IMG/VR virus record: IMGVR_UViG_3300035698_031742
Location: 1-27,252 of that record
Direction: 5' to 3' (one strand)
Source of the DNA: a virus
DNA length: 27,252 bases
Shown: positions 9,591 to 26,157 of the stretch, piece by piece
Numbering within the stretch: the first letter of the stretch is position 1
How the letters are laid out: each line of letters begins with the position of its first letter
Made by a program: the position numbers and the translations under genes
Notes under the pieces: generated by a model
Seen by the model: only the letters and a program-made list of their open reading frames with translations
What the model was told of the DNA's origin: nothing
Databases searched by the model: none

Positions 9591-9748
9591 TTTTGCTTCC
9601 ATTTTAAATTAATTTCCTTCTTTATTATACTCCAATCATTATTATTATTTTTCACAGCAAAAAATGATTCCAAATTATGCTTTACTAAAAATTTTTTATG
9701 ATATCCCCAATGAAATCTTTGTAGGGTATCTGCAAGATAAATTTTCAT
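9587..9748 (-). CDS. Mini-ORF A, 53 aa, DpdA N-terminus-like
   Basis: A 53-codon ORF starting MKIYLAD, with LVKHNLESFFAVKN at residues 21-34 corresponding to the aromatic block of the DpdA-like protein (KKTLWSFFFL). Its ATG overlaps the dpdA stop (ATGA) and its TGA overlaps the start of mini-ORF B (ATGA). It is the most diverged of the four mini-ORFs; the last 15 residues are Lys-rich. It may be an eroded duplicate of the 5' end of dpdA, which lies immediately upstream. Confidence 0.5.
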   Translation of the reverse strand: MKIYLADTLQRFHWGYHKKFLVKHNLESFFAVKNNNNDWSIIKKEINLKWKQK

Positions 9749-10818
9749 CTTGCCATAAATCCCCTCTGCCTTTTCAATTTAAAAGGCCAAGGCCAATCAG
9801 GCATATTCTTTTCAAGATCCAAAAAATAAATAATATTTAATTCATCCCTCTGTTTATAATCATTTGACAATCCAGCCTCTTCAATAATTTCAACCATCCG
9901 TTCACCTTTTAAAAGACCCGAAGATGTTAATGTTCTGACTTCATCCTGAATTGCTTCTTTTCCAGACCACCTCTCATTTTCTTTTAATTCATATGATTTA
10001 GCTTTTACGGCCTTAAAAGATGACAATCCAATTAAATAAACCTTCTCTTCAAGATAAGCCAAGATTTCCTGTTTCTCGGCATTTGAGAAGGTATCAAAGT
10101 GCTTTCCTTCCATCGTTATGCCTGGGGATCTATTTGAAATGCAAACATTCCATGTAGATTCATCATAAATCCATTTACCATTTTTTCGCCTGGGAACATA
10201 AACATTCCCAAAACGACCCATTAAAACCCATGAAGTACTATCAACACTCCACCATGGATATCTCATCATCATTGGAAGGCCAGTCACACCAAAACCATGA
10301 ATTTTCACTTTTGGCATCCGGGATGGCTGATCACAAACCATATCAAAACACTGATCCAAAAATTTAACAATACCCTGACGATTCCTTTTCACAGCAATCC
10401 CGCCAAGAGCTACATAATCATAATTTTCCAAATAATATTTAAAATATTTATAATTTTCCCCATAATGAAAACAAGGCAATGGATTTAAACCAGCCTTTTC
10501 CATTTTCTTTTGATTTTTCAATGTTGCTTCCGGATCACCAATAACATCCAAATTAGCATACACATCCAAAAATTCAATATTATCTTTTATAAATTGGATA
10601 TAATCATCCAGATTGATTTCAATCCCTTTTGTGTATGCTGAAAATGCCCCGGAATCCAAAAAAAGTGAAACTTCCTTTTCACCTGCCATATCAAGTTCCT
10701 CCCCTGATTTATTTAAGAAAAAAAATGACCACAATGTTTTTTTTGCCCCGCCTTTCAACAAAGATGGTAATTGACTTGCTTCTGTCAAAGGTGGAAAACT
10801 TGCAGGATAATATTTCAT
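9745..10818 (-). CDS. dpdA: DpdA-like 7-deazaguanine DNA transglycosylase (TGT paralogue)
   Basis: Predicted enzyme of 357 aa exchanging guanine in DNA for a 7-deazaguanine such as preQ0. It belongs to the tRNA-guanine transglycosylase-like barrel group: SLFLDSGAFSAYTKG (about 50-64) carries the first catalytic-type Asp, VYANLDVIGDPEAT follows, then YVALGGIAV (the GG loop) and SVDSTSW (a second conserved Asp), ending with a barrel strand and a C-terminal helical tail. The classical TGT zinc site is not evident. The gene lies just after folE, queC, queE and queD, which make preQ0, and that context is the strongest support for a DNA (not tRNA) substrate. The ribosome site is weak and it starts two bases after the folE stop, so coupling is likely. 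Confidence 0.8.
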   Translation of the reverse strand: MKYYPASFPPLTEASQLPSLLKGGAKKTLWSFFFLNKSGEELDMAGEKEVSLFLDSGAFSAYTKGIEINLDDYIQFIKDNIEFLDVYANLDVIGDPEATLKNQKKMEKAGLNPLPCFHYGENYKYFKYYLENYDYVALGGIAVKRNRQGIVKFLDQCFDMVCDQPSRMPKVKIHGFGVTGLPMMMRYPWWSVDSTSWVLMGRFGNVYVPRRKNGKWIYDESTWNVCISNRSPGITMEGKHFDTFSNAEKQEILAYLEEKVYLIGLSSFKAVKAKSYELKENERWSGKEAIQDEVRTLTSSGLLKGERMVEIIEEAGLSNDYKQRDELNIIYFLDLEKNMPDWPWPFKLKRQRGFMAR

Positions 10819-10819
10819 T

Positions 10820-11773
10820 TTATAATTTCATCCCCAAAAGGGCCATCAATTCCTGTCTTGCCGCAACGCCCTCTTGACTCTTTTCCAAAAACTTACCTTT
10901 AAGAGATGATGTAACCATCACGGAATTTTGTTTTTCCACTCCCCTTGAAGACATACAAAGATGTTTTGCTTCAATAATACAAGCAGCCCCATAAGCGCCG
11001 GCAATCTTCATAATAACTTCCGTCACCTGTTCACCAATTCGTTCTTGTATTTGTAATCGTCTTGCAAAAATTTCAACAAGACGAGCCAATTTTGAAACCC
11101 CAATAACTTTTCTACCTTCTTTAAATTCTGATGGAATATACGCCACATGTGCTTTCCCAATAAAAGGCAAAAGATGATGTTCACATGTTGAATACATTTC
11201 AATATCCCGACAAATAACCATTTGATCATATGTTTCTGCCTTAAATGTTTTTATAATATCCAATGGATCTTTTTTATATCCTGAAAAAAGATGATCCCAT
11301 GATTTTAAAACCCTTGCAGGGGTTTCAATCAATCCCTCCCGAGTAGAATCTTCTCCAATATATTCAAAAAATCGGGTTATAATATCACCGGCAGAGGTAA
11401 CTAAATTACCTTCCCACCAATAAACAATCCATTTCCCAAAAGTACTTTTAAGCCCAATAGTAGGAGATCCATTTTTACATTTTTTTTGAGGGGATTCATG
11501 AATACAAGCAAAATCATTATTTGGATATCTCGCCCGAGTTTTTCCTGAATCAACAATATCATCAATTATGATAACATCATCGGGTATGTCATTACTTCTT
11601 AACCAACGTGATTCAATAGGAATCCCAAGAAGCCGGGATAATTCCAATGCAACAGGAACCCCGCCTCTTGGGATTGGACAAATTTCTTTATAAAATCCCT
11701 TTCCAATACGTTCTGCCAACCTCTTCACATCTTCATAAAATTCTTTTTCGCAATAATAATATTTTTCCGGCAT
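10820..11773 (-). CDS. folE: Phosphoribosyltransferase-FolE (GTP cyclohydrolase I) fusion
   Basis: A 317-aa two-domain protein. Residues 1-125 form a type I phosphoribosyltransferase: [15 protein letters not shown] (33-47) and the PRPP-binding loop [15 protein letters not shown] (65-79). Residues 131-317 are GTP cyclohydrolase IA, which turns GTP into dihydroneopterin triphosphate, the first step to preQ0. Zinc ligands are C197 and H200 ([10 protein letters not shown]) and C273 (HLCMSSRGV); [19 protein letters not shown] is the family signature helix. FolE alone is about 190-220 aa, so the N-terminal domain is an added module, perhaps for salvage of a base or guanine supply (inference). GGGAGG precedes the ATG. 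It is followed by dpdA with a two-base gap. Confidence 0.93.
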
Positions 11774-11791
11774 TTTAACCTCCCAATCTTG

Positions 11792-12466
11792 TTAAAATAA
11801 AGCGGGATAGATTAAAGGATCTTTAATCTTTGCTTCTTGAAAACCCTTTGCGCGCAATTTGCAAGCGTCACACTCACCACAAGGGGGTCTTTGACCATTG
11901 TAACAAGTATGGGTTTGTTCATACCAATACAAAACCCCTAATTCGCTCATTGTCAAAACCGTTTCCGCTTTAGTTTTCCACATTAAAGGGGTTTTAATAA
12001 TGATATCCACTCCCAAACATAAGCTTAATGCCACCTGAACGGCTTTTACCGAGTTATCTCTACAATCGGGATACCCTGAATAATCCGTTTCACAAACTCC
12101 AGTATATAACGTTTTAATCCCATATAAAGCGGCAAATGATGCAGCAATTCCTAAAAATAAATAATTACGACCCGGAACAAAAGTAGCAGGTAAACTTTCG
12201 AACATAGGGTGTTTCACCGGTATCTTTTTATCTGTAAATAATGCAGACCCGCCAACTTCTTTTAAGCTTGAAATGGGAATACAAATATGTTTTGCCCCTG
12301 ATAAATTTGCTAATTTTTCAGCACAATCCAATTCAATTTTGTGTCGTTGCCCATAATCAAAAGACATGACATAAATAGGATCACATTTATCTAAATATTT
12401 CGCAATTGCCAAACAGGTAGCTGAATCCTGACCCCCTGATAACAAAATAAGGGCAGATTTTGACAT
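11792..12466 (-). CDS. queC: 7-cyano-7-deazaguanine (preQ0) synthase QueC
   Basis: Predicted ATP-dependent enzyme converting 7-carboxy-7-deazaguanine and ammonia to preQ0. The PP-loop SGGQDS is at residues 9-14, DYGQRHKIE (about 38-46) follows, then FVPGRN and the C-terminal zinc-binding cysteines in CYNGQRPPCGECDACK (about 188-203). At 224 aa it is full length for the family. AAGGAG is nine bases before the ATG. It is not fused to an amidotransferase domain, unlike the Gat-QueC proteins some phages use to make archaeosine-type bases. It follows the basic protein gene after a tetraloop hairpin and precedes folE. Confidence 0.96.
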   Translation of the reverse strand: MSKSALILLSGGQDSATCLAIAKYLDKCDPIYVMSFDYGQRHKIELDCAEKLANLSGAKHICIPISSLKEVGGSALFTDKKIPVKHPMFESLPATFVPGRNYLFLGIAASFAALYGIKTLYTGVCETDYSGYPDCRDNSVKAVQVALSLCLGVDIIIKTPLMWKTKAETVLTMSELGVLYWYEQTHTCYNGQRPPCGECDACKLRAKGFQEAKIKDPLIYPALF

Positions 12467-12499
12467 AATAATTTTCTCCTTGGAATTAATAAAGAATAA

Positions 12500-12519
12500 C
12501 CGGGGACCGAAGCCCCCGG
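12500..12519 (-). promoter_or_regulatory. cUUCGg tetraloop hairpin upstream of queC
   Basis: On the minus strand CCGGGGGC / GUCCCCGG pairs as eight pairs (one G.U) around a UUCG loop closed by C-G, the extra-stable tetraloop. It lies in the gap between the upstream gene's stop and queC. No U-run follows. It resembles the ssb/recA hairpin in position: just after the stop of a gene likely to be made in quantity. Confidence 0.6.
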
Positions 12520-12541
12520 CCGGTTATGACAAATCGTAAAG

Positions 12542-13102
12542 TTATTTCTTTTCGATGGAATACTTTCCATCTTTAATAATGAATTCCACGTCCTTTTCAC
12601 GTTCCATACGCAAAGGACGCTTTTTACCGCTGATCTGTGCTTTAAGTGTCGCTTTCATGGAATCGGCATCTTTATCAGGAAATTCCTTAATCAAGACGGT
12701 ATGAATTCCATCAAGATCAATAGGGCCTTTTTTCTCAATGGTCGTCAAAATCATTGCGATAATACCAGGTCTCTTAGGGGCCTTATTCTTAGGCGCCTTT
12801 TTTGCAGCAGAAGATTCATTACCGCCGTCCCTTTTCTTCTCGGATGCTTTTGGATCTGTTGCCTGTTCTTTTTCAGATGCATCCGAAACCGTACCGCTCA
12901 AAATCTCATACAAATCAAAAACCGTTTGCGGAATCTTTTCATCATTTTCTTCAGGAATCGAATCAACCGCCGCCATAAAAACTTCTTCCAGGGCCTTTTG
13001 CTTTATCCCCTGGATCTTGAGTTTTTTCTCCAAAAGATCGGAGTCGTTCAAATCCTTTGCCGCTTGTCTCAAAACTTTGTACTCAACTTTGGTACTCGCC
13101 AT
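12542..13102 (-). CDS. Basic protein with possible winged-helix C-terminal domain
   Basis: A 186-aa protein of unknown function. Residues 1-70 are helical and charged; about 80-115 is a Lys/Ala/Pro-rich linker (SSAAKKAPKNKAPKRPG); residues 116-186 look like a winged helix (IIAMILTTIEKKGPIDLDGI ... MKATLKAQISG ... two beta-like strands ending FIIKDGKYSIEKK). This architecture suggests a DNA-binding protein, perhaps structural or regulatory; no known family can be named with certainty. The ATG at 13102 has AAAGGAGAAAAACC ahead, and an earlier in-frame start at 13126 lacks a ribosome site. A strong promoter precedes it and a tetraloop hairpin follows, which suggests high expression. Confidence 0.8.
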   Translation of the reverse strand: MASTKVEYKVLRQAAKDLNDSDLLEKKLKIQGIKQKALEEVFMAAVDSIPEENDEKIPQTVFDLYEILSGTVSDASEKEQATDPKASEKKRDGGNESSAAKKAPKNKAPKRPGIIAMILTTIEKKGPIDLDGIHTVLIKEFPDKDADSMKATLKAQISGKKRPLRMEREKDVEFIIKDGKYSIEKK

Positions 13103-13154
13103 GGTTTTTCTCCTTTGCCTTGGCATCTAAGGGTTAATGTTTCTATCTATTTTT

Positions 13155-13181
13155 ATTATACCATAAAATATGTTATGTAAA
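13155..13181 (-). promoter_or_regulatory. Strong promoter for the basic protein-queC-folE-dpdA group
   Basis: Minus strand TTTACA (13181-13176), a 15-bp spacer ending TATGG, and TATAAT (13160-13155), i.e. an extended -10 TGGTATAAT. It lies between the queE stop (13199) and the next gene, with room for a leader of about 45 bases. This is the best complete promoter in the window. Confidence 0.65.
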
Positions 13182-13198
13182 GCATTTATTTATCAAAA

Positions 13199-13909
13199 TT
13201 AAATATTTCTTTTAAAAAGATGAAAATACTTATCCGGATTTTCATCCATCAACTTATGAATCTGCATATTAAGATACAAATCATAATGCTTTTGTTTCAC
13301 CATCCATTCTAAAATTTGTTCGGGTTTAAAAGCATCTTTCCCCATCATAGGAGAAAGAGCAATTCTTGCTTTACAGCCCGCTACATGAAATTTTTCAAAA
13401 ATATTTTCATACTCCAAATAATCAAGAGTATCCCGATTTTCTACCACAATTTTTATCCAATCCCTCTTTTTTAATTTTTTTAAATTCTTCCATTCAAAAT
13501 TAGTGCTTCTATGATGAATTTTAAAATCAACAATCCATCCATCAATAAGCGGAAGCAAATAAGCAGGAATTTCTAAACTACCGTTTGTTTCAACCGTAAT
13601 AAAATGATCTTTTCCTAATAAATAAAGCAAATAAAATTCATGAGCAAGAATATGAAGTTCAACTTTTTGTAAAAGAGGTTCTCCTCCAGTTATTGTTATT
13701 TTCTTACAACCAACCTTTTTAATATATTCTAAAATTTGTTCAATTGATTGATCAAAACCTCCTTCCACTACATCCTGGGCTTCTTTGGCATCACAATAAG
13801 AACATGATAAATTACATCCCGCCAAACGAATGAATGTTGACATTCCCCCTTGATGGTTAGCATTCACTTCACCATCAACAGATAAAAACATTTCATTAAT
13901 TCTTAACAT
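13199..13909 (-). CDS. queE: 7-carboxy-7-deazaguanine synthase QueE (radical SAM)
   Basis: Predicted radical SAM enzyme of 236 aa converting 6-carboxytetrahydropterin to 7-carboxy-7-deazaguanine. The N-terminus INEMFLSVDGEVNANHQGGM carries the QueE substrate-binding start, then GCNLSCSYCDA gives the cluster cysteines C32, C36 and C39 (C-x3-C-x2-C). ITITGGEPLLQ (about 71-81) is the SAM-binding GGE motif. The start overlaps the queD stop by 14 bases. With queD it makes a two-gene block directly after the replicative helicase, separated from queC by one other gene. Confidence 0.95.
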   Translation of the reverse strand: MLRINEMFLSVDGEVNANHQGGMSTFIRLAGCNLSCSYCDAKEAQDVVEGGFDQSIEQILEYIKKVGCKKITITGGEPLLQKVELHILAHEFYLLYLLGKDHFITVETNGSLEIPAYLLPLIDGWIVDFKIHHRSTNFEWKNLKKLKKRDWIKIVVENRDTLDYLEYENIFEKFHVAGCKARIALSPMMGKDAFKPEQILEWMVKQKHYDLYLNMQIHKLMDENPDKYFHLFKRNI

Positions 13910-19536: not shown

Positions 19537-19779
19537 TCAGCAGATATGAAATTTTTGCCTTCTTTTTAAAATTTCATCAAAAGGAATATCTTTTATTAAT
19601 TGTAAATTTCCCCTTGGAACAACTAATAAATCTTCTGAATCCATTTTAATAAGACAACTAATTGGACCAGGACCATGTGAAACCAATAAAATAATGCCCC
19701 CTTTACAATGCCATTCATTATACATGGTTTTTGCATACCAAAGTCTAATGATTTGACCAGGGGCCGGTTCCCATATCAT
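19537..19779 (-). CDS. Small conserved-looking phage protein of unknown function
   Basis: An 80-aa protein rich in beta-type stretches (GQIIRLWYAK, GIILLVSHGPGP, DLLVVPRGNLQLI) ending in a basic tail. It resembles a small beta-barrel, but I do not recognise a family. The ATG at 19779 overlaps the helicase stop (ATGA) and GGAGG is ten bases ahead; a longer start at 19785 would be TTG and is less likely. Its neighbours are a UvsW-like helicase and a primase, so a role in replication is possible by context. Confidence 0.7.
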   Translation of the reverse strand: MIWEPAPGQIIRLWYAKTMYNEWHCKGGIILLVSHGPGPISCLIKMDSEDLLVVPRGNLQLIKDIPFDEILKRRQKFHIC

Positions 19780-21134
19780 AACCAACCTGCCTCCACATAA
19801 ATTGCCATTCTTCTTATCCCATGGGCAGATAAATAATAATTGACATCTAAAAAATCAATTATTTCGACAGTACTTTTTTTATCCGTTTTTCTCAATCCGC
19901 GGCCAATTGTTTGCAAAGTCTGCACTTCGGATTTCCCACCGCAAGCATTAATTACAACATCTAATGTTGTAATATCAATTCCTTCCCGCCAAACATTTGT
20001 ACAAATGACACATTTTATTCTTTTTTTTACAAATTCTGTTCTTAAAACTTCTCGGACAGTAGTATTTGTTTTTCCTTGAACAAATTTATTTGGAATTTTA
20101 AAAAGATCAAATATTGCTTTTATATTATCCCCATGTTCAATTTCTTTGACCATTATTAAAACGGTTTTATTATCTTCTATCCGTTTTTTTGCTTCCTGAA
20201 CAATAAGATGGTTTCTAACACGATTTTTAATAATACCTAATTCATAATTTTTTTTATATGTCCTGGCATTTTCATATGCTCTAACTGGAACAGAAATTAG
20301 AGTAATTTTTGGTTTCGCAAGGAATCCTTTTTTAATTCCCTCTTGAATTGTTACTTCCCCGATGATCGGACCCATAAGCCCTTCTAAAACAAATTTTTGT
20401 TCTTTTTTTTCCGGCAGGGTTGCAGTAAATCCAATACGGGATACAGCTTTTTTCATTTTAACAATCGTTTTGCCATACATTCCAGACAAAGAAGCAATAT
20501 GATGAGCCTCATCAATAATAATAATATCATATTGATCAATCTTTTTTGAAGGATATTTCCAAAAAGTTTGAATCGAAGCAAAAGTCAATGGATGGGTATC
20601 ATCTTCTTCTTCTAAAGTCTTAGAACAAATACCATAATCAAATCCCCATTTTTTTGCTTCTTTACTTGCTTGTTTGATTATGGATGTGTTATGGCACAAA
20701 AAAATGGCCCTGGCGTTCGGATATTGACTAAGATACCCGAGCGCCAGGACCGTTTTGCCTGATCCGGTTGGAGATTTAATTACACCAATTTTTTCCGTTG
20801 TCATTTTATCAAGTAACAATTTTTGGTCATCCCTAAAAATAATTCCTGGGAGATTTGGTTCAATTTTTTTTTGCATTCTTTTGGATACAGAATTTGCCAT
20901 CAAATATTTAATTGTTGGATGTTCCCCTTTTTCTAAACAAAATTCGAAAACACGATTTGTAAACCCTAAAAGAAAACGATTGCCTGTCATAAAATAAGCA
21001 TCATATGTCTTTTTTTCGCCGCCAAATTTTTTACGAATAAATATTGTTTTATTATATTTTAGACATGGTTTTACAAAATTAATATAATCAACATCTATAT
21101 CACACCATAATGCATTTATTTGTCTGATTAACAT
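19776..21134 (-). CDS. UvsW-like SF2 DNA helicase
   Basis: A 452-aa superfamily 2 helicase. After an N-terminal domain of 95 residues, FRDDQKLLLDKM gives the Q-like motif, SPTGSGKT (121-128) Walker A, DEAHH (208-212) Walker B, GFTATLP (235-241) motif III, and near the end TIGRGLRK motif VI. The architecture and length match T4 UvsW and bacterial RadD-like enzymes that unwind branched DNA, R-loops and recombination intermediates. It starts with ATG behind AAAGG and a strong hairpin, and overlaps the next gene by four bases. Confidence 0.9.
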   Translation of the reverse strand: MLIRQINALWCDIDVDYINFVKPCLKYNKTIFIRKKFGGEKKTYDAYFMTGNRFLLGFTNRVFEFCLEKGEHPTIKYLMANSVSKRMQKKIEPNLPGIIFRDDQKLLLDKMTTEKIGVIKSPTGSGKTVLALGYLSQYPNARAIFLCHNTSIIKQASKEAKKWGFDYGICSKTLEEEDDTHPLTFASIQTFWKYPSKKIDQYDIIIIDEAHHIASLSGMYGKTIVKMKKAVSRIGFTATLPEKKEQKFVLEGLMGPIIGEVTIQEGIKKGFLAKPKITLISVPVRAYENARTYKKNYELGIIKNRVRNHLIVQEAKKRIEDNKTVLIMVKEIEHGDNIKAIFDLFKIPNKFVQGKTNTTVREVLRTEFVKKRIKCVICTNVWREGIDITTLDVVINACGGKSEVQTLQTIGRGLRKTDKKSTVEIIDFLDVNYYLSAHGIRRMAIYVEAGWL

Positions 21135-22299: not shown

Positions 22300-23466
22300 T
22301 TAAATCAAATTCGTCGCCTGTTCCTGAATTTGTTTTACAAGCATTGGAGTCATAATTCTCAAAAGCGTCCTTTTGTTTTTCGTGGCCGCTACATCTTCCA
22401 AGGATTTAATACCCCGCTCAAACATTTTTTTGGCTCGGGCACCACCAATACCCTTTAATTGACAAAGCGGTACAACTTCCTCGGAAACAGCATACTTGAT
22501 ACGAATGGGTAAAGATTTCCAAAAATCATCTTTTCCCCATTTTTCATAAAAACCATCAACCATTGAAAAAGATTGACAGATTCGATTAACATCAAAAATT
22601 AGATTTCGAGAAATAGCCTTGACCGTGCCATTTCCAGCTTCCCCATCCGTTAAGCAATTATACGCTGCCAATATAGCAGGAATAGAATTTTGGTTTTTAA
22701 CCTGGCATCCTCTGTTTTTCAAATGCCATAGAAAATCATCACATTCAGGCTGAAGATCCCTTGTGATGTATCCGGGATCATTTGAAGGAATGTCTCCAAT
22801 AGCCCATGCCAAGGTGATGTCATCCAAATCGATGAAAGATTCCTGCTTTTCTCCTTGAACTGGCCGTCCAAATAATTGACAAAAATTCTTATGCCATCCG
22901 GCCACATCATAGGGATTGTAATACATCCAAGCGGAAACCCTTCCAAGTCCTGTTACTCTTGGATGACCTTCGTAAATTTCTGTCATTTCCATTTCCGCCA
23001 AATCTTCCATCAAGGCAGAGGCATCCACTTTGTCAAATTTCATATCTTGACGAGATGCCAATGAACGAGAATACCAAGCAAAAAGATCCTTGTCTCCTTT
23101 GATTGCTTTGGTTTCAATTTCTGCCAGGACATGAAAAGCCAAGATTCCATGAGAATTTAAAACGGACGTAACAGGCCGTGGATTGGCAAAAGTGTATTGC
23201 CAGGCATTGGAACTTCCTTCCGGGATAACCATGAAGACATGGCCTTCATCATCAATCCCGTAACGGCCTGCCCGGCCTGCCATCTGAATGATATCCAATT
23301 CGTCAACTTCGGACATTCCGCGATGAACCCCAACAATTACAACATTTCTTGCCGGGAGGTTGCAATTATGGGTTAAAATCCCGTTTGCAAAAAAATTGTG
23401 ATTCTTTTCCGTTGTGATGTCAATCTGCTTGGTTGGTGGTTTCTTTTTGATTGATTTAATTCTCAT
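22300..23466 (-). CDS. C-intein plus C-terminal half of Ski2/Hel308-like helicase
   Basis: A 388-aa protein. Residues 1-34 are the C-intein: TKQIDITTEKNHNFFANG is intein block F and ILTHN the block G end (penultimate His, last Asn). Cys35 is the +1 nucleophile. The rest is the helicase C-half: CNLPARNVVIVG finishes motif V, QMAGRAGRYG (61-70) is motif VI, then a winged-helix and ratchet region ending in a hairpin-helix (CQLKGIGGARAKKMF, about 342-356). After trans-splicing, the helicase would be 536 + 354 = 890 aa. The ATG at 23466 has AAAGGAGG nine bases ahead, inside the endonuclease gene, and overlaps that gene's end by 11 bases, so it is expressed as its own protein. Confidence 0.93.
   Translation of the reverse strand: MRIKSIKKKPPTKQIDITTEKNHNFFANGILTHNCNLPARNVVIVGVHRGMSEVDELDIIQMAGRAGRYGIDDEGHVFMVIPEGSSNAWQYTFANPRPVTSVLNSHGILAFHVLAEIETKAIKGDKDLFAWYSRSLASRQDMKFDKVDASALMEDLAEMEMTEIYEGHPRVTGLGRVSAWMYYNPYDVAGWHKNFCQLFGRPVQGEKQESFIDLDDITLAWAIGDIPSNDPGYITRDLQPECDDFLWHLKNRGCQVKNQNSIPAILAAYNCLTDGEAGNGTVKAISRNLIFDVNRICQSFSMVDGFYEKWGKDDFWKSLPIRIKYAVSEEVVPLCQLKGIGGARAKKMFERGIKSLEDVAATKNKRTLLRIMTPMLVKQIQEQATNLI
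23365..23466 (-). other. C-intein (split intein, 34 residues)
   Basis: Codons 1-34 of the C-terminal helicase gene. KNHNFFANG matches the block F consensus, THN followed by Cys matches block G. Block F has Asp at position 4 (QID), as in ordinary inteins, where class 3 inteins have Cys. The junction is N34|C35 with C35 coded at 23362-23364. Confidence 0.92.
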
Positions 23467-24178
23467 TGGACAAAACCTCCTTTGTTTTAATTAAAATTTC
23501 TTGTGCAACGATTTGAGGGTTTTTTTGAGCATTAAAACGAAATCTATAAACTTTCCATCCCCGATTTCTTAAAAATCTATCTTTTTTAATATCCCTAATT
23601 CTTGTTTTATCATGCAATTTAGAATCAACTTCAATAGCAATCATCTTATCTAATAAAGCAAAATCTATCATATAAGACCCTTTATTAAATGGAACTTCAT
23701 AATCAAAAATAAATCCAAAAGGTAACAATACTTTTATTATTGCCTTTTCAAATTGACTTGGTTCATTATGCCTTCCAAGATGTTTAAATGGAGAGGTTTT
23801 TCTTCCTTCTTTATAAGCTTCTTTTAACCATTTTGAACTAGCTTGACCAATCCTTTCTTTTGCTTCTTTTGTATGAGTCTTTCCATAAAAATGATTTTCT
23901 TTTCCAGATTGATTATTATTTTTTTTATTTAAAGGAAAATTTTTTCTACAATAAATTTTTTTCATAGATTCGCTAATTTGTTTTTTTGTTTCTTCTGATT
24001 GGTGAGATCTATTTTTTGCCTTTTGTTTTAATTTTTCTTTTGTCGCCTGACAAGTAAAATTCGCATAAGGAAATTTATTCTTATATTCCGCCGCGGTCAT
24101 TCCATGTGAAAATAAATGCCCAGTTCCTATTTGTTTAAATTTTTTTCCACAGATTTGACAAATAATAAAATCTTTCAT
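23456..24178 (-). CDS. Free-standing homing endonuclease between the intein halves
   Basis: A 240-aa protein. Residues 7-25 form a C2H2-type zinc finger (CQIC ... HLFSH) followed by GMTAAEYKNKFP, a MucR-like pattern. Two NUMOD3-like DNA-binding segments follow (about 56-74 and 91-113, SGKENHFYGKTH). The C-terminal domain (about 140-230) is of the Vsr/DUF559 PD-(D/E)xK type: E144, D172, AIEVDSKLHD (181-190) and a RDIKKDRFLRNRGWKVYRFR tail. Free-standing nucleases with this fold are known between split-intein halves in 'fractured' phage-like genes. It would cut intein-free alleles and drive its own spread. AAGGAGGTAAAA precedes the ATG, adjacent to an 18-bp stem. Cleavage itself is inferred. 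Confidence 0.9.
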   Translation of the reverse strand: MKDFIICQICGKKFKQIGTGHLFSHGMTAAEYKNKFPYANFTCQATKEKLKQKAKNRSHQSEETKKQISESMKKIYCRKNFPLNKKNNNQSGKENHFYGKTHTKEAKERIGQASSKWLKEAYKEGRKTSPFKHLGRHNEPSQFEKAIIKVLLPFGFIFDYEVPFNKGSYMIDFALLDKMIAIEVDSKLHDKTRIRDIKKDRFLRNRGWKVYRFRFNAQKNPQIVAQEILIKTKEVLSNEN

Positions 24179-24188
24179 TTTTACCTCC

Positions 24189-24238
24189 TTGACTTGGGAT
24201 TATATTTTCAACTATCTTATAATATAACCCCAAGTCAA
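24189..24238 (-). promoter_or_regulatory. 18-bp stem-loop masking the endonuclease ribosome site
   Basis: In the minus-strand RNA, TTGACTTGGGGTTATATT pairs with AATATAATCCCAAGTCAA over 18 positions (17 Watson-Crick, one G.U) around a 14-base loop. The 3' arm ends exactly where GGAGG of the endonuclease ribosome site begins. It could block initiation on transcripts that read through from the N-terminal gene; hairpins doing this are known at several T-even phage endonuclease genes. Confidence 0.7.
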
Positions 24239-24258
24239 AGTCAAGCCCCAAGTCAAAG
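24228..24258. repeat. 13-bp direct repeat at the N-intein stop
   Basis: CCCCAAGTCAAAG occurs at 24228-24240 and 24246-24258. The second copy contains the TGA stop of the N-intein gene, the first forms part of the stem. A duplication of the stem arm into the intein end could have made the stop and thereby split the intein. Confidence 0.6.
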
Positions 24259-24549
24259 TATAACCAAATCGTCCATTTCTGTTAAATTGGCCGCTTCTTT
24301 TGTAATAAAACTTCCATCATCCTGACGAACATAAAAAGGATGTTTCTTATCAACCCGAATTGTCTGCCCATTTTCCAACTCAATTTCAAGGTCATATTCA
24401 GGTTCATATTCAAGAGCATTCAAAACAACATCTTGTTCAAATTTGCCAGTTTTTTCATTATAGGAACAAATTGCATTCCCGGCTTTGACATCTTTTGCAA
24501 GTTTTTTGGTTCCATTTGCCATCAAAATTTCTGTTTCCTCATTGACGGC
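24253..24549 (-). other. N-intein (split intein, 98 residues, Ala at position 1)
   Basis: Begins at Ala537 (codon at 24547-24549) of the N-terminal gene. AVNEETEILMANGTKKL is intein block A with Ala in place of the usual Cys or Ser at position 1; the sixth residue Thr and eighth Ile align with known inteins. Block B reads GQTIRVDKKHPFYV, with the conserved His but Asp in place of the usual Thr three residues before it. It ends FITKEAANLTEMDDLVIL. Confidence 0.9.
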
Positions 24550-26157
24550 GCCCCATGCCAAAGTTGATGTTGAAACAATAACTCTTAATCCCTTACCTTT
24601 GTCTTGAAAAGATTTTTCAATGGACAATCTTTCGTCCATTTTTAAATCTGCACTGTGAAAGCTGGCGTTCACGTCATGATTTTTCAAACGGCGAACCATA
24701 TCTCTGCCAGTTGCTTTATCATGGACAAAAACCAGAAATTTTTCATCAGGTTTTGATTTCACAATGTCCACAGCCATCCTTCTTTTGATAACTTGAGTTG
24801 CGTGATAATCCTGACCACCCCATGATGAACGAGCAGGGGTGTATTCGTGATAATGCATCTGAAGAACAACCGGACGCCAATTACAATAAATAACATCTGT
24901 ATCCTTCTTGTTAAGGGTTGTTAACCAATGGCCCAATTCATCAACATTAGGCATGGTTGCAGAAAGAAAAAGAACCCGGGCATTGAAATTCAAACGGGTA
25001 AATCGCATAATTCCCGTCTCAACTGCATGACCTCGATTGGTGGAAAGAATGTGACTTTCATCCACAATAACCAAGCCAACTTGCCCCATCCAGTAATTCT
25101 TTTCGGCCTTGTACTTCCGAGTCCGTGAATCCATCATCTCCGAAGTCATTACAATGATTCTGCTGCCGGTTATCTGCTTTTTCATGGCTTCTGAAAGAAC
25201 ATAATCGCCGGTCATGATTGTGATTTTTTCGTTTGGAAATCGTTTTTGCCAATCCTCGTACTTTTCCTGGGTCAAGGATTTCAAAGGGGATAAATAAATG
25301 ATCCTTTGATCGTTTGCCAAAACAAAATCCATCAAAAGTTCAGCACAAATGGTTTTGCCCGCGGAAGTATTAGCCCCGATGATCATATTACGGTCATGAT
25401 GCCGCAAAGGATAAACCAGGGATTGAACCGGATTGAAATTTTCAAAAGGATATTTCCAATCCTGATAATCTGTTGTCGGAATCAAAACGACATTATTGCC
25501 GTCCACAGGTTTTAATTGGCTTTTAATTCCAGCCAATTCTTTGTCTCTCTGAACAATGGCCTCGTTGATAAGTTGATCTGTTTCTTTATCCATGTCTGAG
25601 GCCTCTTCCAATCCATCAAGATAATCCTGGACAAATTCTGGATTCCTGCTTTTGACATTGGCTTCCAAAGTGGGATAACCTTTTGGTGATGTTTCTCCCA
25701 GGACATAAGCCATTTGCCCATCTGATAAAATTCCCCTCTGATTGACTTGTTCCAAAAGGGATTGTGCAAATTTACTGCGTGAATTGGCGGAAAGAACAGC
25801 TTTTACGTAATTAAAATCTATAATCTGTTGTTTTCCGGCATCGGCCATGAATTCCTGAATCCGGGAATGAATCCTATCTTGGATTGTAGTGGCCCCATCA
25901 ACCCGTAGAATTTTCTTTCCCTTGCCCATGGGTCGGTCATTTGGAATGTCCCAAAAAACCACCCGTATGGCATCTTTGCCTTTTTCCCTGGTTATTTGTG
26001 TCCGTTTATCAACTGTGCTGTAAATACGGACATTGATTCCCGTGTTTTCTGTCGGGATATCATAAACAACTTCCAGGGCATCAGGGACATCAGCAATAAA
26101 AGCATCCCCGGGCAAAATTGCCTCAAATTCCTGCTTTGTCAATTTTACAAAACCCAT
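24253..26157 (-). CDS. N-terminal half of Ski2/Hel308-like helicase plus N-intein
   Basis: A 634-aa protein. Residues 1-105 carry a small domain (VRIYSTVDKRTQITREKGKD, RPMGKGKKILRVDG) of a type also seen alone in phages, and 115-185 a helical linker. The SF2 core has GANTSAGKT (261-269, Walker A), VDESH (365-369), SATMP (399-403) and motif V TSTLAWG (530-536). It stops exactly there: residues 537-634 are the N-intein, so helicase motif VI is missing and is supplied by the gene at 22300-23466. AAGGAGG precedes the ATG at 26157. The complete helicase requires trans-splicing. Ski2-type helicases unwind branched DNA or RNA and are unusual in phages. Confidence 0.94.
   Translation of the reverse strand: MGFVKLTKQEFEAILPGDAFIADVPDALEVVYDIPTENTGINVRIYSTVDKRTQITREKGKDAIRVVFWDIPNDRPMGKGKKILRVDGATTIQDRIHSRIQEFMADAGKQQIIDFNYVKAVLSANSRSKFAQSLLEQVNQRGILSDGQMAYVLGETSPKGYPTLEANVKSRNPEFVQDYLDGLEEASDMDKETDQLINEAIVQRDKELAGIKSQLKPVDGNNVVLIPTTDYQDWKYPFENFNPVQSLVYPLRHHDRNMIIGANTSAGKTICAELLMDFVLANDQRIIYLSPLKSLTQEKYEDWQKRFPNEKITIMTGDYVLSEAMKKQITGSRIIVMTSEMMDSRTRKYKAEKNYWMGQVGLVIVDESHILSTNRGHAVETGIMRFTRLNFNARVLFLSATMPNVDELGHWLTTLNKKDTDVIYCNWRPVVLQMHYHEYTPARSSWGGQDYHATQVIKRRMAVDIVKSKPDEKFLVFVHDKATGRDMVRRLKNHDVNASFHSADLKMDERLSIEKSFQDKGKGLRVIVSTSTLAWGAVNEETEILMANGTKKLAKDVKAGNAICSYNEKTGKFEQDVVLNALEYEPEYDLEIELENGQTIRVDKKHPFYVRQDDGSFITKEAANLTEMDDLVIL

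What the first reader, a model, noticed from the sequence alone, without database searches (positions are those of the whole stretch)
24547..24549. Split intein begins with Ala and lacks the class 3 signature
Aligned to block A, the N-intein starts AVNEETEI, so residue 1 is Ala where most split inteins have Cys. The next extein residue after the C-intein Asn is Cys. Such Ala1 inteins must skip the first acyl shift, as in class 2, where the +1 Cys attacks the upstream bond directly. The class 3 alternative needs Trp in block B and Cys in block F; here those positions are Phe and Asp. Block B also has Asp where Thr is usual. Extein joining would be ...LAWG|CNLPAR.
Basis: partly seen in the sequence, partly recalled or inferred. 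Interest (0 to 1): 0.7.

Follow-up and report, generated by a model that had tools for sequence, protein, structure and literature searches.

The report
Phage split intein lacking first nucleophile
A phage helicase gene is broken in two by a self-splicing protein element (a split intein) whose normally essential first residue has become alanine, so to rejoin the helicase it would have to use a shortcut reaction so far proven in only one family of inteins, from archaea.

Summary
A phage Ski2/Hel308-like helicase is split at motif V into two genes (24253-26157 and 22300-23466, minus strand), with a free-standing DUF559/NUMOD3 homing endonuclease (23456-24178) between them. The N-intein begins with Ala (GCC, 24547-24549). 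Intein-free homologues read STLAWG|xNLPAR with no gap, which fixes both junctions. His B:10, Asp F:4, His G:6, Asn G:7 and Cys+1 are kept. Trp B:12 and Cys F:4 of class 3 are absent (Phe, Asp).

The closest relative is a split intein at the same site in another phage, with the same endonuclease family. It begins with Ser (TCG), so Ser to Ala is one base change. Ten cis inteins at the same site all begin with Cys. The element therefore comes from class 1 phage split inteins, not from the archaeal KlbA class 2 family (p-AU 0.015), and it lacks KlbA's Ser G:6 and Thr B:7.

Best reading: class 2-like direct attack by Cys+1, evolved independently and in split form. Main rival: a recently inactivated intein, because non-conservative replacement of residue 1 has always blocked class 1 inteins in the laboratory. 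Neither intein nor exteins show decay. No splicing was tested. I found no published split class 2 intein.

The parts
24550..26157 (-). N-extein: residues 1-536 of a Ski2/Hel308-like phage helicase (Walker A to motif V, ending ...STLAWG)
   Evidence: Pfam DEAD/Helicase_C, PHROG helicase, 53% identity to uninterrupted L001 over the joined protein
24256..24549 (-). N-intein, 98 aa, AVNEETEI...DDLVIL, followed by stop at 24253-24255
   Evidence: Pfam Intein_splicing, TIGR01445, alignment with sister L063
24547..24549 (-). Ala1 codon GCC in place of the usual Cys/Ser nucleophile (sister element: TCG Ser)
   Evidence: sister codon
24328..24369 (-). Block B GQTIRVDKKHPFYV: Asp B:7, His B:10, Phe B:12
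24189..24238 (-). 18-bp inverted repeat between the N-half stop and the endonuclease start; its 3' arm abuts the Shine-Dalgarno GGAGGT of the endonuclease ORF
   Evidence: (-29.3 kcal/mol, z -4.7)
23456..24178 (-). Free-standing homing endonuclease ORF (240 aa): zinc-finger-like N terminus, NUMOD3, DUF559/Vsr-like nuclease domain
   Evidence: Pfam, PHROG homing endonuclease, 44% identity to the endonuclease of the sister split intein
23365..23466 (-). C-intein, 34 aa, MRIKSIKKKPPTKQIDITTEKNHNFFANGILTHN, own start codon with Shine-Dalgarno AAAGGAGG; Asp F:4, His F:13, Thr G:5, His G:6, Asn G:7
   Evidence: TIGR01443 above cut-off
23362..23364 (-). [quoted passage not shown]
22300..23364 (-). 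C-extein: remainder of the helicase (motif VI QMAGRAGR to the HhH C terminus)
   Evidence: Pfam HHH_5 weak, alignment to uninterrupted homologues

Best explanation
A fractured-gene split intein of the phage class 1 lineage, carried with its own free-standing homing endonuclease, has lost its N-terminal nucleophile (probably Ser1 to Ala1, one base) and still trans-splices. The N- and C-inteins associate into one HINT fold. His B:10, with Asp at B:7, polarises the Gly-Ala bond. Cys+1 attacks that amide directly to give the branched thioester, with Asp F:4 assisting. Asn34 cyclises with help from His33 and frees the intein, and an S-to-N shift seals ...LAWG-CNLPAR..., giving an intact 890-aa helicase. 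Shown: anatomy, junctions, retained residues, relatives, absence of sequence decay. Inferred: association, splicing, and the direct-attack step.
For: Junctions are fixed by uninterrupted homologues. All splicing residues other than residue 1 are present; Thr B:7 is Asp, but the sister with a normal Ser1 has Asp there too. Cys+1 is kept although the closest intein-free relatives have Arg there. No block F Cys exists; the only Cys of the intein is Cys28. No sign of decay: the intein's terminal branch (0.62, 0.43) is shorter than that of its Ser1 sister (0.72, 0.83), and the C half downstream of the break diverges no faster relative to the N core (identity ratio 0.65-0.93) than in uninterrupted pairs (0.59-0.96). 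Both downstream ORFs have good Shine-Dalgarno sequences. Direct attack by Cys+1 is established for KlbA Ala1 inteins (PMC4031507).
Against: No splicing data. PMC3196547 states that every tested non-conservative substitution at the N terminus of a class 1 intein blocked splicing. Class 2 activity is known only in KlbA inteins, which have Ser G:6 and need Thr B:7; this intein has neither. Only one record carries Ala1. A single T-to-G change from Ser would give it, so a recent loss or an assembly error cannot be excluded.
Confidence: 0.5

Rival explanations
1. Inactive intein: a recent Ser1 to Ala1 mutation abolished splicing. The halves still associate through the intein, possibly with C-terminal cleavage, and the helicase either works as a non-covalent complex or is dispensable.
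For: Sister element has Ser1 with the same Asp B:7 and THN. TCN to GCN is one base. Non-conservative residue-1 changes have always blocked class 1 inteins (PMC3196547), and a naturally inactive phage-derived intein without the nucleophile is described there. The window has a second SF2 helicase of the UvsW type (19776-21134).
Against: No decay in the splicing residues, intein branch length or C-extein. The break lies in helicase motif V, so an unspliced protein would probably be crippled. The form present is a consensus assembled from a metagenome.
Confidence: 0.32
2. Assembly or sequencing error, or a minor variant: the real codon is TCC (Ser1), and the element is an ordinary class 1 split intein like its sister L063.
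For: Only one record is available; one base separates GCC from TCC; the sister has Ser1.
Against: All three ORFs of the element are intact. From Cys (TGC/TGT) two changes would be needed. Nothing in the sequence suggests low quality at this place.
Confidence: 0.1
3. Another residue takes over the first step, in a class 3-like route: Cys28 of the N-intein (NAICSYN), or some other group, forms an internal branch before transfer to Cys+1.
For: The intein has two class 3-like traits, Asp at B:7 and the THN ending (PMC12245125 describes DXXH and THN as class 3 traits). The known split class 3 intein AceL NrdHF also begins with Ala and has a degenerate triplet (PMC7891396).
Against: No Cys at F:4 (Asp) and no Trp at B:12 (Phe). 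Class 3 inteins form a separate clade (100/98); a clade of this intein with them is marginally rejected (p-AU 0.049). The sister lacks Cys28 (Trp). Asp B:7 occurs with Cys1 in the same-site cis intein L068 and THN with Cys1 in P1201 TerL, so neither trait implies class 3 chemistry.
Confidence: 0.06

Closest known systems
Split intein at the same helicase site in IMGVR_UViG_3300025174_000850 (locus L063, found here)
   Same: Same insertion site (motif V, TLA[WY]G|C), same split architecture, homologous endonuclease between the halves (44% identity), N-intein 42% identical, Asp B:7, Phe B:12, Asp F:4, THN|C
   Different: Begins with Ser1, so it can do the ordinary class 1 acyl shift
Fractured-gene phage split inteins: UvsW in Salmonella phage SEA1/S16, UvsX in Vibrio phage vB_VmeM-32, NrdA in Campylobacter phage CC_R7
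   Same: N-half with N-intein, an endonuclease or other ORF, C-half with short C-intein; nearest neighbours in the intein tree after L063
   Different: All begin with Cys1; different host genes
Methanocaldococcus jannaschii KlbA intein (class 2; PDB 2jmz)
   Same: Ala1, Cys+1, His B:10, Asp F:4
   Different: Archaeal, contiguous, Ser at G:6, Thr at B:7; clade with the window intein rejected (p-AU 0.015)
[quoted passage not shown]
   Same: Split, phage-like contig, fractured gene with an endonuclease between, Ala at position 1, Thr at G:5
   Different: Has the block F Cys branch nucleophile (MCT triplet) and proven class 3 chemistry; this one has Asp at F:4
Cis LAGLIDADG inteins at the same helicase site (L022, L026, L066-L073)
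   Same: Exactly the same insertion point, ending HN|CN[LF]PAR
   Different: Contiguous, about 300-433 aa, all Cys1, on other branches of the tree

Membership tests
Split inteins (fractured-gene type) | N-intein at the end of one ORF and C-intein at the start of another, together covering blocks A, B, F, G | tested here: met
   joined helicase aligns without a gap
Split inteins (fractured-gene type) | Free-standing homing endonuclease between the gene halves | tested here: met
   DUF559 + NUMOD3 ORF 23456-24178; homologue in the same place in L063
Split inteins (fractured-gene type) | Trans-splicing activity | not testable with these tools
   needs expression of both halves
Class 1 inteins | Cys, Ser or Thr at residue 1 | tested here: not met
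   GCC Ala at 24547-24549
Class 2 inteins (KlbA type) | Non-nucleophilic residue 1 with Cys+1 and no class 3 signature | tested here: met
Class 2 inteins (KlbA type) | Thr B:7, His B:10 and Asp F:4 (all required in KlbA, PMC4031507) | tested here: not met
   His and Asp present; B:7 is Asp
Class 2 inteins (KlbA type) | Ser at G:6 | tested here: not met
   His at G:6
Class 2 inteins (KlbA type) | Orthologous to the KlbA intein | tested here: not met
   Different host gene; tree places it with phage split inteins; KlbA clade p-AU 0.015
Class 2 inteins (KlbA type) | Direct attack of Cys+1 on the upstream amide | not testable with these tools
   needs a branched-intermediate assay
Class 3 inteins | Trp B:12, Cys F:4, Thr G:5 | tested here: not met
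   Phe, Asp, Thr: one of three
Class 3 inteins | Member of the class 3 clade | tested here: not met
   six phage class 3 inteins group at 100/98 without it; held together p-AU 0.049, marginal

The most novel reading that the evidence does not exclude
Direct attack by the +1 Cys (class 2 chemistry) arose a second time, independently of KlbA, in a phage split intein whose closest relative still has Ser1. It would be the first split class 2 intein and the first outside KlbA, and the Ser1/Ala1 pair would show how little is needed to leave class 1.
Probability: 0.45. Interest if true: 0.75.

Novelty: new variant of a known kind. Interest (0 to 1): 0.55.

Why it matters
[quoted passage not shown] In 2020 no split class 2 intein was known (PMC7891396), and I found none reported later in the held library. 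This element and its Ser1 sister at the same site form a natural near-pair for that question. A split Ala1 intein would also make a trans-splicing tool that cannot form the N-terminal thioester, so it should not suffer thiol-induced N-cleavage by that route. If instead it is dead, it is a rare snapshot of nucleophile loss in a phage intein, the step proposed at the origin of classes 2 and 3.

Tried and rejected
Searching viral contigs with the N-intein alone found nothing. The relatives came from the helicase alignment and the junction pattern HNCN[LFIM]PAR; a search with the Ser1/Ala1 pair of N-inteins found only the sister again. The pattern NFFANGxxTHNC brought many THN-ending inteins in other genes; those N-inteins whose start could be read begin with Cys, apart from one class 3-like Lys1. 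More than 40 phage and cellular N-inteins read here begin with Cys; the exceptions are Ser1 in L063, Ala1 in the window and the class 3 set.

An RNA intron instead of an intein: no Rfam match in the window, and both halves carry intein motifs. A splice point elsewhere: rejected by the gap-free empty-site alignment. KlbA orthology and class 3 membership: rejected. Asp B:7 as compensation for Ala1: rejected, because the Ser1 sister shares it.

Other copies of the same virus could not be looked up.

Full report
What is there. The window is a 27,252-base virus record. On the minus strand a Ski2/Hel308-like helicase is encoded by two genes. The first (24253-26157, 634 aa) carries the DEAD and helicase C domains and ends in a 98-aa N-intein. 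The second (22300-23466, 388 aa) begins with a 34-aa C-intein and continues with the rest of the helicase. Between them lies a 240-aa ORF (23456-24178) with NUMOD3 and DUF559/Vsr-like nuclease matches, a homing endonuclease. All three ORFs have Shine-Dalgarno sequences (read). This is the known 'fractured gene' layout of phage split inteins.

The observation. The first intein codon, 24547-24549, is GCC, Ala. The reading is firm because relatives without the intein exist: L001, L009, L011-L015 and others read STLAWG R/V/M/L/C NLPAR, and the joined window helicase aligns to them with no gap at the junction. The splice point is therefore WG|C. The retained residues are His B:10, Asp F:4, His F:13, His G:6, Asn G:7 and Cys+1. 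The departures are Ala1 and Asp B:7; B:12 is Phe, not Trp. [quoted passage not shown] The intein has no Cys other than Cys28.

Relatives at the same site. A pattern for HNCN[LFIM]PAR and the helicase alignment gave ten cis LAGLIDADG inteins at exactly this point. All begin with Cys. One further record, L037/L063, has a split intein here with a homologous endonuclease (44% identity) and the same overlap of endonuclease end and C-intein start. Its N-intein begins SVAYGTKI: Ser1, codon TCG, with the same Asp B:7, Phe B:12, Asp F:4 and THN|C. Ser TCN to Ala GCN is one base.

Ancestry. In trees of 22 and 23 intein splicing domains the window intein and L063 are sisters (99/97 and 99/96), near the Cys1 split inteins of phage UvsW and NrdA. 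KlbA, checked against PDB 2jmz, lies apart; holding it with the window intein is rejected (p-AU 0.015). Six phage class 3 inteins form their own clade (100/98); holding the window intein with them is marginally rejected (p-AU 0.049). The alignments are short and some branches long, so only the sister pair should be leaned on. The cis and split sets may be independent invasions of one site.

Is it decaying? The window intein has the shorter branch of the pair (0.62 against 0.72; 0.43 against 0.83). The helicase C half is as conserved relative to the N core as in uninterrupted homologues (ratios 0.65-0.93 against 0.59-0.96). So either splicing persists or the loss is recent.

Mechanism. With Ala1 the N-to-S/O shift is impossible. 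KlbA inteins solve this by direct attack of Cys+1; the literature says all class 2 inteins are KlbA orthologues, with Ser G:6, and need Thr B:7, His B:10 and Asp F:4 (PMC4031507). Against easy conversion stands the statement that all non-conservative residue-1 substitutions tested in class 1 inteins block splicing (PMC3196547). I put direct attack by Cys+1 at about 0.5, an inactivated intein at about 0.3, a sequence error at about 0.1 and another internal nucleophile at about 0.06. It works like class 2 if it works; it is not a member of the class 2 family as defined.

Asp B:7. It is shared by the Ser1 sister and by the Cys1 cis intein L068, so it is not tied to loss of the nucleophile. PMC12245125 notes DXXH and THN as class 3 traits and finds THN in the class 1 intein gp41-1. 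Class 3 inteins read here have other letters at B:7.

Novelty. PMC7891396 (2020) says no split class 2 intein had been reported and describes the first split class 3, AceL NrdHF, also with Ala at position 1 in a fractured phage-like gene. Later papers held in the library report none; the library lacks most subscription journals. This is a new variant of a known kind, and its interest depends on whether it splices.

Noticed in passing
24189-24238, minus strand: An 18-bp inverted repeat (folded -29.3 kcal/mol, z -4.7) sits between the N-half stop and the endonuclease, its 3' arm touching the endonuclease's Shine-Dalgarno; a 14-nt direct repeat lies beside it at 24228-24259. It may limit endonuclease translation or transcription.
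   Followed up: partly
9745-13909, minus strand: Cluster of a queuine tRNA-ribosyltransferase-like protein, GTP cyclohydrolase, QueC-like and QueE-like proteins: a 7-deazaguanine (queuosine-type) set, perhaps for DNA modification in this phage.
   Followed up: no
L064 (G011) and L065 (G012): The same helicase family is broken at Walker A/motif Ia into two ORFs about 4-5 kb apart, with other genes between (an HNH endonuclease-like ORF in L065). No intein motifs and no Rfam intron match were found.
   Followed up: partly
L022, L026, L032, L034-L036, L038, L040-L043: Motif V of this phage helicase family is an intein hot spot: many cis LAGLIDADG inteins at one codon, and related phages with a native Cys at +1 and no intein (L024, L025, L027, L028, L030).
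   Followed up: yes
L076: A Thermoplasmata MAG contig encodes one long protein with about nine intein-like N-terminal splicing domains in a row.
   Followed up: no
L121: One phage protein seems to hold a class 3-like intein start (Lys1...DHLW) and a second, Cys1 intein, with an ending THN|C.
   Followed up: no
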